Assembly: GCF_000012965.1 (NCBI RefSeq)
Contig: NC_007575.1
Span: 496,001 to 560,000, forward strand
Direction: 5' to 3'
Source of the DNA: Sulfurimonas denitrificans DSM 1251
GTDB lineage: Bacteria > Campylobacterota > Campylobacteria > Campylobacterales > Sulfurimonadaceae
Length of the DNA stretch: 64,000 bases
Shown: one piece after another, positions 28,845-47,001 of the stretch
Layout of the letters: the number at the start of each line of letters is the position of its first letter
How positions within the stretch are numbered: position 1 is the first letter of the stretch
The notes under the pieces: model-generated
Database searches by the model: none
Told to the model about the DNA's origin: nothing
What the model saw: the letters and a program-made list of their open reading frames with translations, nothing else
Made by a program: the position numbers and the translations under genes

Positions 28845-29841
28845 GATAGAGTCCACAACTTTAGAGCAGGCATGTAAAGATGCCGCTTTGGCGTTAGAGT
28901 GCTCTGCTAGTGAGTTAGCAATTGAGATTGTTCAATCTCCAAGTAAAGGCTTTATGGGGCTTTTTAAAAAGAGTGCAATTATAGTAGCTGCAAAAAAGAC
29001 AAAAGATAAAATTTCACAGCAGACTCAAAAAACTCAAGATATCTCCGTGGGTACAAAACCAGCTCCTTTTATTAAAAAAGATAAACATGTAGAAGATAGA
29101 GTTGAATCAAAGCCTGAACCAAAAAAAGAGTTTAAGGCAGAGGTAAAAAAAGAGTATAAATCAGAGCCAAAACCAGAGTATAAATCAGAGCCAAAACCAG
29201 ATTATAAACCTAAGAAAGAGTCTCCAAAACAGCATCATAATATTGTAAATGATACCATTATGCCTCAGTCTTTTGTAAGTATGCAAGATGATGATGATGA
29301 TTACAATATAGAAGATATTAACTATACAGCAGATTATGATGAAGATGAAGATTATAATGAAAACAAAAAGGCAAAAATAAGTGCTTATGAAGTCTCGAAA
29401 AATGTTGAAAAAGAGATAAATCAACTATTTGAATCAATCTGTTTTAATATTGAAAAAATAGAAGTTACTCCTTATGATGAAAATACTCTTCTTATTGAGT
29501 TTAAGGGTGAAGACGCTGCACTTCTTATAGGCAAAGAGGGTTACAGATATAAAGCGCTATCATATATGATTTTTAATTGGATAAATACAAAATATCAACT
29601 TCAACTCCGCCTAGAAATAGCAGAGTTTTTAAAAAATCAAGAAGAGTCAGTTGCTAGATATCTTGTAACAGTGTGTGAAAATATCGATAGAGATGGACGT
29701 GCTCAGACAAAAATTCTTGATGGTGTTTTAATCCAGATTGCGCTAAAAGAGCTTAGAGAAAAATATCCAAATAAATATGTAGCAGTTCGCTCTACAAGAG
29801 ATGGACTAAAGTTTATTATTATTAACGATTACCATAACTAA
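28837..29841 (+). CDS. Jag/KhpB-family RNA-binding protein
   Basis: A 334-residue protein with an N-terminal Jag_N domain (KIESTTLEQACKDAALALEC), a long acidic/lysine-proline linker (residues 60-190), a KH domain (about 215-290, with LLIGKEGYRYKALSYM) and a C-terminal R3H domain (about 270-330, ending RSTRDGLKFIIIND). KhpB proteins bind RNA and affect cell envelope synthesis. ATG 28837 is chosen because it gives the canonical Jag_N start; the frame opening at 28789 would lie inside yidC. The linker contains a tandem octapeptide. Confidence 0.88.
   Translation: MIKIESTTLEQACKDAALALECSASELAIEIVQSPSKGFMGLFKKSAIIVAAKKTKDKISQQTQKTQDISVGTKPAPFIKKDKHVEDRVESKPEPKKEFKAEVKKEYKSEPKPEYKSEPKPDYKPKKESPKQHHNIVNDTIMPQSFVSMQDDDDDYNIEDINYTADYDEDEDYNENKKAKISAYEVSKNVEKEINQLFESICFNIEKIEVTPYDENTLLIEFKGEDAALLIGKEGYRYKALSYMIFNWINTKYQLQLRLEIAEFLKNQEESVARYLVTVCENIDRDGRAQTKILDGVLIQIALKELREKYPNKYVAVRSTRDGLKFIIINDYHN
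29152..29199 (+). repeat. 24-bp tandem repeat in jag linker
   Basis: Two perfect 24-bp copies (29152-29175 and 29176-29199) encode EYKSEPKP twice, with a third partial copy following. The repeat is in frame, so copy changes alter linker length only. Confidence 0.85.
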
Positions 29842-42769: not shown

Positions 42770-44779
42770 ATGGCACTATATAAACTCGAAGACCATGTCA
42801 ACGATTGGGTTAAAGCAAAACTTGAAGCACTCAATCTAAAAAATCAAAAAGATTATCATACAGAATCTGCAATTCCTGATTACCTTAAAGAAGCACTGCA
42901 AGGACGAGCTAAAACTGAAAAAAAAACCAACTTTGGCAAACCTGATTTTAGCATTACAAAGTATAAACAAGCCCCTATTGTTATTGAAAATAAACTCGGG
43001 CTAAAAAAACTCATCGAAGAGACAAAAGATGGTGTCAAATTTGATGAAAAATCTATTAGTAATTATGCTGTTAATGGAGCTTTATACTATGCTACAGGTA
43101 TGATTGCATCTGGTAAATATCATGAGGTTATCGCTATTGGGATAGCGGGTGATGGAGATGATGCTATAGAGCTAAAAGTTTACTATGTTTATGGTTCTGG
43201 TGAAAATTCATTTAAGTTACTAGAAAATGTATCCACATTGGACTTTTTAGAAAATCAAAAAACCTTTGATGTATTTTACAAAGATGCTATCCTAACAGAA
43301 GATGAAAAACATGAAATTCTCATCAAATCACAAGCAGAGTTACAAAAATACTCTAAAAGTTTAAATAAACTTATGCACAATCACAATATCACCGCTCCCC
43401 AACGAGTACTATATGTATCTGGTATGTTATTATCGATGCAAAATGTTGTAGATACAAAAGGGACTAAAATTCAAGATGGATTAGTTCCCCAAGATTTAAA
43501 AGGGGTACAAACAGAGTCTAAGCGTGATGCTATTCAGATTGTAAATCAAATTAAAGAATTTCTAACCGCTCGAAATATTCCAATCGAAAAACAAAACCTT
43601 ATGTTGTCAAGTTTTTATGAAATTTCAAAAGATGTACAACGGGATGAATTAGAAATATTAGACAAAGAAGTATCAAAACTCATTGATGGAAAAGCGAGTA
43701 TCAATAAACAGATTTTTACATTCATCTACCACAATATTTTTCTCTCAATTGATGCAATGGCAGGACATCTTGACATCATGGGTGAGATGTATAGTGAGTT
43801 TTTAAAATATGCTTTAGGTGATGGTAAAGAGATAGGAATAGTTTTAACTCCCCCTTATATCACTAAAATGATGACCACAATCTTAGGTGTCAATCAAAAC
43901 AGCAAAGTTATGGATTTAGCAACAGGTTCGGCAGGATTTCTTATCTCTTCTATGGAGATGATGATTGATGATGCAGAAGCTAATTATGGAAAAGAAACAA
44001 CGGCTGCAAAGAAGAAAATTGATATCATCAAAAAAGAACAATTATTAGGAGTGGAACTTAATGCTGAAATGTTCACTCTTGCAGCTACAAATATGATTTT
44101 ACGAGGAGATGGAAGTTCAAATATCCATAAAGGCAATACATTCAATACTCCAGAACAACTCTATACTAGTTTTAAAGCAAATAAACTATTACTCAATCCA
44201 CCATTTAGTTATGATGAAAATGGTATGCCTTTTATAGCTTTTGGTTTGGATAAAATGGAAAAAGGAGGACTTGGAGCTATTATCATCCAAGACTCGGCAG
44301 GAAGCGGAAAAGCAACTAAATCAAATCAAGCAATGCTTAAAAAACACACTCTAAAAGCTAGTATCAAAATGCCTACTGATTTATTTCAACCAATGGCAGG
44401 AGTGCAAACTAGTATCTATGTTTTAGAAGCACACAAGCCGCACGACTTTGAACAAACAGTAAAATTTATCGACTTTAGAAATGATGGTTACAAAAGAACT
44501 AGTCGTGCTTTACAAGAAATAGATGAACCGACAAAGCGATATGCAGATATTGTCAAAATCTACAAAGCAGGGAAAAATGCCAAAGTAGAAGCTCCTTGGA
44601 ACCTAAATGAGGTCTATATAGAGGACTTTATCACCCCAAGCGGAAGTGACTGGAACTTTGACCAACATAAAACTATCGATAGTAAACCAACACTAGAGTA
44701 TTTTAAAAAAACGGTGAGTGATTATCTATCTTGGGAAGTGTCAAATATTTTAAAACAAAGAGGTGATAAGGGAAAGTAG
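42770..44779 (+). CDS. BcgI-like type IIB restriction-modification subunit (nuclease-methyltransferase fusion)
   Basis: A 669-residue protein that joins an N-terminal PD-(D/E)xK nuclease to an N6-adenine methyltransferase. The nuclease part has GKPDFSITKY and PIVIENKLG (D and E-x-K) at residues 56-78. The methyltransferase has a SAM motif VMDLATGSAGFLISSME near residue 383 and catalytic NPPF in LLLNPPFSYDENG near residue 474. There is no helicase, unlike HsdR/HsdM type I. Size and architecture equal BcgI A (about 640 residues), which works with a separate specificity subunit, encoded next. Such enzymes cut on both sides of a bipartite site. Confidence 0.85.
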   Translation: MALYKLEDHVNDWVKAKLEALNLKNQKDYHTESAIPDYLKEALQGRAKTEKKTNFGKPDFSITKYKQAPIVIENKLGLKKLIEETKDGVKFDEKSISNYAVNGALYYATGMIASGKYHEVIAIGIAGDGDDAIELKVYYVYGSGENSFKLLENVSTLDFLENQKTFDVFYKDAILTEDEKHEILIKSQAELQKYSKSLNKLMHNHNITAPQRVLYVSGMLLSMQNVVDTKGTKIQDGLVPQDLKGVQTESKRDAIQIVNQIKEFLTARNIPIEKQNLMLSSFYEISKDVQRDELEILDKEVSKLIDGKASINKQIFTFIYHNIFLSIDAMAGHLDIMGEMYSEFLKYALGDGKEIGIVLTPPYITKMMTTILGVNQNSKVMDLATGSAGFLISSMEMMIDDAEANYGKETTAAKKKIDIIKKEQLLGVELNAEMFTLAATNMILRGDGSSNIHKGNTFNTPEQLYTSFKANKLLLNPPFSYDENGMPFIAFGLDKMEKGGLGAIIIQDSAGSGKATKSNQAMLKKHTLKASIKMPTDLFQPMAGVQTSIYVLEAHKPHDFEQTVKFIDFRNDGYKRTSRALQEIDEPTKRYADIVKIYKAGKNAKVEAPWNLNEVYIEDFITPSGSDWNFDQHKTIDSKPTLEYFKKTVSDYLSWEVSNILKQRGDKGK

Positions 44780-44796: not shown

Positions 44797-45909
44797 ATGC
44801 TAAATAGTGTTGAGTGGGGAGAAGAAGTTTACTTGAAGGATTTATTTACAATAAAACGGGGAAAAAGATTAACTGTTGAAAATAGAGTTAAAGGAAATCG
44901 TCCATTAATAACTGCTGGTTATGAAAATACTGGGGTTGCTGAATTTATTGGAAATAATAATCAAGAAATATTTCCAGAAGATACAATAACAATTGATATG
45001 TTTGCTAATACTTTTTATCGAAATTATAGTTATTCAGCTGATGATAATATTTTGGTTTTATTTGATAAAGAAAAAATTCCATCAAAAGCTAAAAACTTTA
45101 TTGTTGGTTTGATTAATAAAGTACTTTCTACAAAATTTTCTTATGGTAAACAATATAGAATGGGAAGTTTTGAGGAAACTAAAATCCAACTTCCCATAAA
45201 AAATGGGAAGATAAATTTTTCATTTATGGAAAAATTTATAGCGGAGCTAGAAGCGGAGCATATAGCGGAGCTAGAAGCGGAGCATATAGCGGAGCTAGAA
45301 GCTTATTTGGTGGCAACTGGACTAAAAGATCATACTTTAACGGTTAAAGAACAACAGGTTTTAGATGATTTTGAAAATGGAAAGATTACATTTAAAGAAT
45401 TTACTTATGAAAGCATTTTTAATAAAATTGTTCAAGGCAGAAGACTCACAAAAAATGACCAAATTTCAGGCGATATTCCTTTTGTGATGGCTGGAACAAC
45501 AAATACAGGAGTTGTAAATTATATTTCAAACCCAGTTGCAAGTTTTCCTAAAAATTCAATAACTATAGATATTTTTGGTAATACTTTTTACAGAAGTTAT
45601 AATTTTGGAGCAGGTGATGATACAGGTGTATATTGGAGTGATGAGAAAAATTATTCAAAAGAAACGATGCTGTTTTTTGCAGCATCAATGGGAAAATCGT
45701 TATTTGGAAAATTTGATTTTGGCAAAAAATTAAGAAGTTCACAAAGTTTAAATTTCAAAATGAAACTACCATTTATTAACAAACAGCCAAACTACATAAT
45801 TATGGAAACCTTCATCTCCGCCATCCAAAAACTGGTTATTAAAGATGTAGTATTGTATGCGGATAAAAAAATAGCTACTACAAAAAGTGTTGTAGAGAAA
45901 GAGATATAG
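44797..45909 (+). CDS. restriction-modification specificity subunit (HsdS/BcgI B-like)
   Basis: A 370-residue protein with two homologous target-recognition halves (about 5-160 and 205-365). They share pairs of motifs such as FTIKRGKRLTVENR versus NKIVQGRRLTKNDQ, ITIDMFANTFYRNYSY versus ITIDIFGNTFYRSYNF. Between them is an octapeptide repeat AELEAEHI. It follows the nuclease-methyltransferase gene by 17 bases. ATG 44797 lacks a clear ribosome site; the frame upstream offers only a CTG, so it may be translated by coupling. Confidence 0.88.
   Translation: MLNSVEWGEEVYLKDLFTIKRGKRLTVENRVKGNRPLITAGYENTGVAEFIGNNNQEIFPEDTITIDMFANTFYRNYSYSADDNILVLFDKEKIPSKAKNFIVGLINKVLSTKFSYGKQYRMGSFEETKIQLPIKNGKINFSFMEKFIAELEAEHIAELEAEHIAELEAYLVATGLKDHTLTVKEQQVLDDFENGKITFKEFTYESIFNKIVQGRRLTKNDQISGDIPFVMAGTTNTGVVNYISNPVASFPKNSITIDIFGNTFYRSYNFGAGDDTGVYWSDEKNYSKETMLFFAASMGKSLFGKFDFGKKLRSSQSLNFKMKLPFINKQPNYIIMETFISAIQKLVIKDVVLYADKKIATTKSVVEKEI
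45241..45302 (+). repeat. 24-bp in-frame tandem repeat in specificity gene
   Basis: Copies at 45241-45264 and 45265-45288 are identical, and a partial copy runs 45289-45302. Each encodes the spacer octapeptide between the two recognition halves. Copy change keeps the frame and should change helix length, as known for the TAEL repeats of EcoR124-type subunits. Confidence 0.92.
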
Positions 45910-45921
45910 AGGAGTTTATCA

Positions 45922-47001
45922 ATGGATAATCTAACAAACGATAACGAATACAAAAACTTTATAGTAGATGTCGCTACAAAAATCAAACAAACTCAAGTAA
46001 AACTTGCAGTTAGTGTAAATAGTGGGTTGCTTCATTTTTATTTTGAACTTGGTGGTATGATTAGCCAAAAGCAACAAAAAGCAAAATGGGGAGCTAAGTT
46101 TATTGAAACTATGGCAAAAGATATCAAAAAAGAGTTTCCTGAACTGAAAGGCTTTTCAAGAACCAATCTTTTTAGTATGAAAAAATTCTATGAATTTTAC
46201 TCCATTGATTTAGTCCAACTCAGAGTTGGACTAATTGAAAATCCTCAAAATCAATTGGAAGATATCCTTTTTTCTATACCATGGCGACACCATATTGAGA
46301 TACTCAATAAAGTTGATTCTATAGGTGAAGCTGTGTATTATATTGATCAGACCTTGCAAAACAACTGGAGCAAAGATACTTTAGCAATAAATTTAAAATC
46401 AAAACTTTTTCAAAGAGATAGTAAAGGGGTCAATAATTTTTCAAATACCTTACCAAAACCACTATCAGACCTTGCAGTCCAAACGATAAAAGACCCTTAT
46501 GTGTTTGATTTTTTTAGTTTTGATAAGCCTTTTATAGAAAGAGATATAGAAAATAAGCTTATAGACAATATCACAAAATTTTTACTAGAGCTAGGTCGTG
46601 GTTTTGCATTTGTAGGGAAGCAGTACCACTTAGAAATCGCAGGGTTTGATAGATATATTGACCTTCTTTTTTATCATATCGACCTTAAGTGCTATGTGGT
46701 GATTGAGTTGAAAAACAAAAAGTTTATCCCTGAATATGCTGGAAAATTGAATTATTATATTTCAGCTGTTGATACTATGCTTAAAAAAGAAAATGACAAT
46801 CCAACAATCGGGATTCTTCTTTGCCGTGACAAAAATAATATAGAAGCAGAATTTGCCCTAAGGGATATAAATAAACCTATGGGTGTAAGTGAATTTGAGC
46901 TTAAACTTACAGAGATACTACCTGAAAATTTACGAAGCTCTCTTCCTACTATTGAAGAGTTTGAAGCTGGATTTGGAGATATTTTAGGGGATGATGAGTG
47001 A
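45922..47001 (+). CDS. DUF1016/YhcG-type PD-(D/E)xK nuclease
   Basis: A 359-residue protein of the YhcG/DUF1016 family. The N-terminal DUF1016_N domain (1-150) contains GFSRTNLFSMKKFYEFY, and the C-terminal nuclease domain holds DRYIDLLFYH and VVIELKNKKF (D and E-x-K) near residues 245-270. Such proteins commonly ride in restriction islands and are thought to be nucleases. AGAGGAG precedes ATG 45922. It follows the specificity gene by 12 bases and is likely cotranscribed. Confidence 0.88.
   Translation: MDNLTNDNEYKNFIVDVATKIKQTQVKLAVSVNSGLLHFYFELGGMISQKQQKAKWGAKFIETMAKDIKKEFPELKGFSRTNLFSMKKFYEFYSIDLVQLRVGLIENPQNQLEDILFSIPWRHHIEILNKVDSIGEAVYYIDQTLQNNWSKDTLAINLKSKLFQRDSKGVNNFSNTLPKPLSDLAVQTIKDPYVFDFFSFDKPFIERDIENKLIDNITKFLLELGRGFAFVGKQYHLEIAGFDRYIDLLFYHIDLKCYVVIELKNKKFIPEYAGKLNYYISAVDTMLKKENDNPTIGILLCRDKNNIEAEFALRDINKPMGVSEFELKLTEILPENLRSSLPTIEEFEAGFGDILGDDE

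What the first reader, a model, noticed from the sequence alone, without database searches (positions are those of the whole stretch)
45241..45302. In-frame 24-bp repeats in the specificity subunit linker may switch recognition spacing
Identical octapeptide-coding repeats lie exactly between the two recognition halves. In EcoR124-type enzymes copy number of a four-residue repeat changes the spacer length of the target. Here 24-bp units keep the frame, so slippage could change specificity without loss of function, a form of phase variation.
Basis: partly seen in the sequence, partly recalled or inferred. Interest (0 to 1): 0.6.

Follow-up and report, generated by a model that had tools for sequence, protein, structure and literature searches.

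The report
Variable octapeptide ruler in restriction specificity subunit
A DNA-recognition protein of a bacterial restriction system carries a 24-base repeat in the helix joining its two DNA-reading halves, and relatives, including E. coli strains with otherwise identical genes, carry different repeat numbers, so repeat number may set how far apart the two target halves must lie.

Summary
The repeat is real: two perfect 24-bp units plus 18 bp of a third (45237-45302), the longest short-period repeat in the window, in frame inside a 370-aa specificity (S) subunit. It lies in the predicted helix (CR1, residues 141-173) between the two recognition domains. The system is not EcoR124-type Type I but BcgI-like Type IIB: a fused restriction-methylation subunit, a separate S subunit and no adjacent hsdR. 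A survey of Campylobacterota plus E. coli loci found linker length moving in exact 8-residue steps (0-3 extra units; 93 of 94 distinct genes on the lattice). Of 11 gene pairs with both recognition halves at least 80% identical, 7 differ in unit number. In E. coli, strain SCU-104 differs from E2855 over the 1134-bp S gene only by one added 24-bp unit, and one strain carries 1-unit and 2-unit copies. Silent sites of the units are homogenised within genes. So copy-number change is established for the family; that it alters target spacing (predicted +2 bp per unit) is inferred from EcoR124 and NgoAV and untested here. Fast reversible switching in this organism is not shown. Best label: new variant of a known kind.

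The parts
42770..44779 (+). RM subunit (BcgI A-like): N-terminal PD-(D/E)xK-like motif (PD at 58 by script, followed by IENK) fused to N6-adenine methyltransferase (TGSAGF at 385, NPPF at 476), 669 aa
   Evidence: Pfam N6_Mtase; 35% identity over 654 aa to the gene annotated 'restriction enzyme BcgI alpha chain-like' in phage PhiR12_3; motif positions
44797..45909 (+). Specificity (S) subunit, 370 aa, TRD1-CR1-TRD2-CR2
   Evidence: Pfam Methylase_S, two stretches; model matches HsdS structures and BsaXI S
44797..45216 (+). TRD1, first recognition domain (about residues 1-140)
   Evidence: model and alignment; boundaries approximate
45217..45315 (+). CR1 helix (residues 141-173) that carries the repeat
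   Evidence: predicted continuous helix; 25 residues in the L042 relative with one unit fewer
45237..45302 (+). 24-bp repeat array, 2.75 copies, 100% identical; units 45237-45260, 45261-45284, partial 45285-45302
45316..45792 (+). TRD2, second recognition domain (about residues 174-332)
   Evidence: model and alignment; boundaries approximate
45793..45900 (+). CR2 helix (residues 333-368), expected antiparallel partner of CR1
   Evidence: model; antiparallel pairing is from the Type I literature (PMC3874165)

Best explanation
The repeat is a length-variable segment of the CR1 helix in a BcgI-like Type IIB specificity subunit. Gain or loss of whole 24-bp units, by replication slippage or unequal recombination between units, adds or removes exactly one octapeptide (8 residues: about 80 degrees of helix turn and 12 angstrom of rise, equal to two TAEL repeats of EcoR124) without breaking the frame. 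The two recognition domains are thereby offset, so the enzyme should methylate and cut a target with the same two half-sites but a different spacer, predicted +2 bp per unit. Shown: anatomy, octad quantisation, independent copy-number changes with unchanged recognition domains, a natural E. coli pair differing over the S gene by one unit. Inferred: mechanism of change, the spacer effect and its size. Not shown: switching within this Sulfurimonas strain.
For: Perfect in-frame repeat in the predicted inter-TRD helix: 33 residues here, 25 in the L042 relative with one unit fewer. Linker gap 1/9/17/25 residues in 93 of 94 distinct genes, one fragment at 0. Of 11 pairs with both TRD flanks at least 80% identical, 7 differ in unit number: 0 vs 3, 0 vs 2, 0 vs 1 (twice), 1 vs 2 (three times, one of them the E. 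coli pair). E. coli S allele: 18 genomes with a 1133-1134-bp gene, 2 with 1158 bp; SCU-104 differs from E2855 only by one 24-bp unit over the S gene; strain JNEC-KY171 holds 1-unit and 2-unit copies. Within-gene codon identity between units 88% versus 46% expected from each gene's own codon use and 42% in permutation (0 of 2000). Precedents where repeat number tracks spacer: EcoR124I/II (PMC3874165), NgoAV LEAT, 1 vs 2 repeats giving N6 vs N7 (PMC6789123), H. pylori Type I group 2 (PMC3983042). BcgI-like systems of H. pylori have published bipartite motifs TCAN6TRG and CYAN7TRG (PMC3936762, PMC4450513).
Against: No motif is known for this enzyme. In BsaXI (Type IIB) half-S constructs, CR1 deletions of 8-32 residues lowered activity but left the N5 spacer unchanged (PMC9159934). 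The two published BcgI-like motifs in H. pylori differ by 1 bp, which a 2-bp step cannot give (their unit numbers are unknown here). A range of 0 to 3 units would imply 6 bp if linear; the only 3-unit gene found is a short, half-length S frame of 234 aa. With 2-3 copies, slippage is probably slow.
Confidence: 0.62

Rival explanations
1. Tolerated length polymorphism. Slippage between 24-bp units changes CR1 length, but the coiled coil absorbs it (loop-out or register slide), so target spacing is unchanged; the polymorphism is near-neutral.
For: BsaXI CR1 deletions up to 32 aa kept the spacer (PMC9159934). Unit number varies 0-3 with the same TRDs. Octad quantisation follows from 24-bp slippage alone.
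Against: No non-octad lengths in 93 of 94 genes. Diverged repeats keep exactly +8 residues (L107, L115, L119, L125), which suggests selection on length. Type I homologues respond to repeat number with spacer changes (PMC3874165, PMC6789123, PMC3983042).
Confidence: 0.2
2. Activity tuning. Unit number alters pairing of CR1 with CR2 and with the RM subunits and so changes enzyme activity or assembly (on, weak, off) rather than target spacing.
For: CR1 shortening lowered BsaXI activity without changing its spacer (PMC9159934). Some E. coli alleles carry a frame-breaking 8-bp tract next to the array, so on/off control of this gene occurs in relatives.
Against: Open full-length S genes with 0, 1 and 2 units occur, which argues against one working length. 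Type I precedents change spacing while keeping activity.
Confidence: 0.13
3. Ordinary coiled-coil sequence whose repetition is only codon and composition bias of an E/A/L-rich helix, with no copy-number dynamics.
For: E/A/L-rich helices are common; the unit has an internal 12-bp near-repeat (78% match).
Against: 100% DNA identity of the units here; unit codon identity far above the genes' own codon use; a whole-unit difference between otherwise identical E. coli genes.
Confidence: 0.02

Closest known systems
EcoR124I / EcoR124II (Type IC) TAEL repeats
   Same: In-frame repeat in the CR1 helix between two TRDs; natural alleles differ in repeat number with the same half-sites; spacer N6 vs N7 (PMC3874165)
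   Different: 4-residue, 12-bp unit; separate HsdR translocase; here an 8-residue, 24-bp unit in a fused-RM Type IIB system
NgoAV (Type I, Neisseria gonorrhoeae) LEAT repeats
   Same: 0-3 natural repeats in the S linker; 1 vs 2 repeats read GACN6TGC vs GACN7TGC; a frameshifting G tract lies downstream (PMC6789123)
   Different: 4-residue unit, Type I; spacer effect measured there, not here
BcgI-like Type IIB systems of H. pylori (Hpy99XXII, HpyUM032XIII)
   Same: Fused RM plus S or half-S subunits; bipartite m6A motifs TCAN6TRG and CYAN7TRG (PMC3936762, PMC4450513). H. pylori-group genomes searched here carry BcgI-like S genes with 0-3 octapeptide units
   Different: Published work found describes phase variation by a G tract, not the octapeptide; unit numbers of those two strains are unknown here
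BsaXI (Type IIB)
   Same: RM2S enzyme with a TRD1-CR1-TRD2-CR2 S subunit; structural match to the model
   Different: No octapeptide array reported in the passages read; CR1 deletions did not change the spacer in half-S constructs (PMC9159934)

Membership tests
BcgI-like Type IIB restriction-modification system | Nuclease and N6-adenine methyltransferase fused in one polypeptide | tested here: met
   PD...ENK motif and N6_Mtase domain in 42770-44779; 35% identity over 654 aa to an annotated BcgI alpha-like protein. The nuclease part rests on the motif and the homology; Pfam gave no nuclease domain
BcgI-like Type IIB restriction-modification system | Separate S subunit with two recognition domains next to the RM gene | tested here: met
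   44797-45909, two Methylase_S stretches; model matches S subunits including BsaXI
BcgI-like Type IIB restriction-modification system | Cleavage on both sides of a bipartite target | not testable with these tools
   Needs biochemistry
Type I system (EcoR124-type) | Separate HsdR translocase subunit | tested here: not met
   Neighbours are an RND pump, a YhcG/DUF1016 nuclease and ilvC; no hsdR at the locus. The rest of the genome was not searched for hsdR
EcoR124/NgoAV-type variable spacer repeat | In-frame repeat in the inter-TRD helix whose number varies among alleles with the same TRDs | tested here: met
   In relatives. Within the window's species: not tested
EcoR124/NgoAV-type variable spacer repeat | Four-residue repeat unit | tested here: not met
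   Unit is 8 residues; lengths step by 8
EcoR124/NgoAV-type variable spacer repeat | Copy number changes the spacer of the target | not testable with these tools
   No motif data for alleles of known copy number
Phase-variable (contingency) locus | Frequent, reversible switching within a clone | not testable with these tools
   No reads or serial isolates; E. coli 18:2 split of one S allele and both forms in one strain are suggestive only

The most novel reading that the evidence does not exclude
A family of BcgI-like Type IIB enzymes, spread over Campylobacterota and E. coli prophages, changes specificity by adding or dropping one octapeptide in a helical ruler, moving the two target halves by a fixed number of base pairs per unit while keeping the enzyme active; some members combine this with a frameshifting ON/OFF tract next to it.
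Probability: 0.5. Interest if true: 0.65.

Novelty: new variant of a known kind. Interest (0 to 1): 0.52.

Why it matters
Spacer switching by linker repeats is known from a few Type I enzymes. Finding the same design with a different unit, in a different enzyme class, with copy numbers changing faster than the recognition domains, would mean motif prediction for many BcgI-like enzymes must read the repeat number, and that S genes now treated as equivalent may methylate different sites. The E. coli pair differing over the S gene by one unit makes the question directly testable.

Tried and rejected
Type I membership: rejected for lack of hsdR at the locus and a fused RM protein. Chance repeat: rejected. 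Methylome of the window's own strain: the one paper found reports only 5mC motifs for S. denitrificans DSM1251 (PMC8112702). Literature search for the octapeptide sequences: no paper. PDB sequence search with S: no useful hit; only the fold search worked. Close relatives of this S in viral contigs: none with the window query; the linker profile found five loci, one with an extra unit (L160). Comparing TRD geometry between the two models was not attempted: no coordinates were returned, and the L042 model is of low confidence (pLDDT 61).

Full report
OBSERVATION. The S gene at 44797-45909 holds two perfect 24-bp units and 18 bp of a third at 45237-45302, read in frame as IAELEAEH IAELEAEH IAELEAYL. 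Forty-two consecutive bases match at offset 24. Apart from its own harmonic at 48, the next best short-period run in the 64-kb window is 12 bases, and shuffles give no match.

SYSTEM. The gene before S (42770-44779) encodes a 669-aa protein with an N-terminal PD...ENK motif and an N6-adenine methyltransferase domain. It is 35% identical over 654 aa to a protein annotated as BcgI alpha-like in an E. coli phage. There is no hsdR next to it. This is therefore a BcgI-like Type IIB system. The whole genome is one contig of 2,201,561 bp; from memory this size fits Sulfurimonas denitrificans DSM 1251. Downstream lies a YhcG/DUF1016 nuclease gene.

ANATOMY. AlphaFold gives a 33-residue helix, 141-173, that carries the repeat (148-171), and a second long helix, 333-368 (mean pLDDT 76, about 70 in the repeat block). 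A relative with one unit fewer (L042) has a 25-residue helix in the same place (low-confidence model). The fold matches Type I S subunits, EcoR124I and Type IIB BsaXI among them. In these enzymes the two helices pair antiparallel and set the distance between recognition domains (PMC3874165).

RELATIVES. With the E. coli and other loci, 94 distinct S genes were obtained. The gap between the two conserved linker blocks is 9 residues in 64 genes, 17 in 18, 1 in 10 and 25 in 1; one fragment has 0. Steps are exactly 8 residues. The window's gene has 17.

COPY NUMBER CHANGES WITHOUT TRD CHANGE. Eleven gene pairs have both flanks (TRD1 and TRD2 DNA) at least 80% identical; seven of them differ in unit number, for example L128 (0) and L130 (3), L034 (2) and L120 (0), L102 (1) and L116 (2). 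In E. coli, 18 genomes carry one S allele at 1133-1134 bp and two carry 1158 bp. Strain SCU-104 is identical to E2855 over the S gene except for one extra 24-bp unit. Strain JNEC-KY171 carries both a 1-unit and a 2-unit copy with like recognition domains at two loci. A third allele also occurs with 1 and 2 units.

TURNOVER. In genes with one full unit, the two half-copies use the same codon at 88% of same-residue sites (211 of 239), against 46% expected from each gene's own codon use and 42% in permutation across genes (0 of 2000 as high). Related genes inflate the z value, but the contrast is large. Units are thus repeatedly duplicated or homogenised inside each gene. In several 2-unit genes the units have diverged (L107, L115, L119, L125) yet keep exactly the +8 length, which points to a working 2-unit form.

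THE WINDOW'S OWN ALLELE. Its RM subunit is 96% identical to that of L042 (Sulfuricurvum), whose S shares TRD2 (79%) but has one unit fewer; TRD1 is about 85% identical in L043, also with one unit fewer. So the same RM type works, by inference, with both lengths. Variation inside the window's species could not be tested.

FUNCTION. Eight residues of helix give about 80 degrees and 12 angstrom; a TAEL repeat gives 40 degrees and 6 angstrom and shifts the EcoR124 spacer by 1 bp (PMC3874165). The direct prediction is +2 bp per octapeptide. NgoAV with 1 and 2 LEAT repeats reads N6 and N7 (PMC6789123), and H. pylori Type I group 2 shows the same rule (PMC3983042). Against a simple ruler, BsaXI half-S proteins with shortened CR1 kept their spacer (PMC9159934), the two published BcgI-like motifs of H. 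pylori differ by 1 bp (PMC3936762, PMC4450513), and the 3-unit gene is a half-length frame. The spacer effect is therefore likely but unproven.

VERDICT. Observation confirmed; interpretation partly supported. No paper describing this octapeptide array was found in the searches made, which cover open-access papers only. PMC3983042 states that information on Type IIG S genes of H. pylori was insufficient.

Noticed in passing
L151, L152, L154-L157 (E. coli), just behind LEAYL: An 8-bp simple repeat GGACTCGC with variable copy number sits right behind the octapeptide array; copy number decides whether the S frame stays open, so an ON/OFF tract lies next to the in-frame array.
   Followed up: partly
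L148 and L158 (E. coli JNEC-KY171): One strain carries two copies of the same S allele with 1 and 2 octapeptide units at different chromosomal loci.
   Followed up: partly
window 45922-47001 (+): YhcG/DUF1016 PDDEXK nuclease gene directly behind S; among the fetched loci only L006 has a similar gene (78% identity over the part held) near its S gene.
   Followed up: partly
window 29121-29208 (+): Another 24-bp repeat (3.7 copies, 87%) in an ORF that looks like a Jag/KhpB-type protein (recognised by eye); a low-complexity charged linker, probably ordinary.
   Followed up: partly
L031, L033, L035: Campylobacterota S-like genes with FTELEAELEAELEARKKQY-type linkers, a tetrapeptide-type array caught by the same DNA pattern; L033 and L035 have an M-like ORF beside them.
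   Followed up: no
L051 (Staphylococcus phage phi-42): A BcgI-like S gene of S. aureus phages has a different linker without the octapeptide array, so the array marks a subfamily.
   Followed up: no
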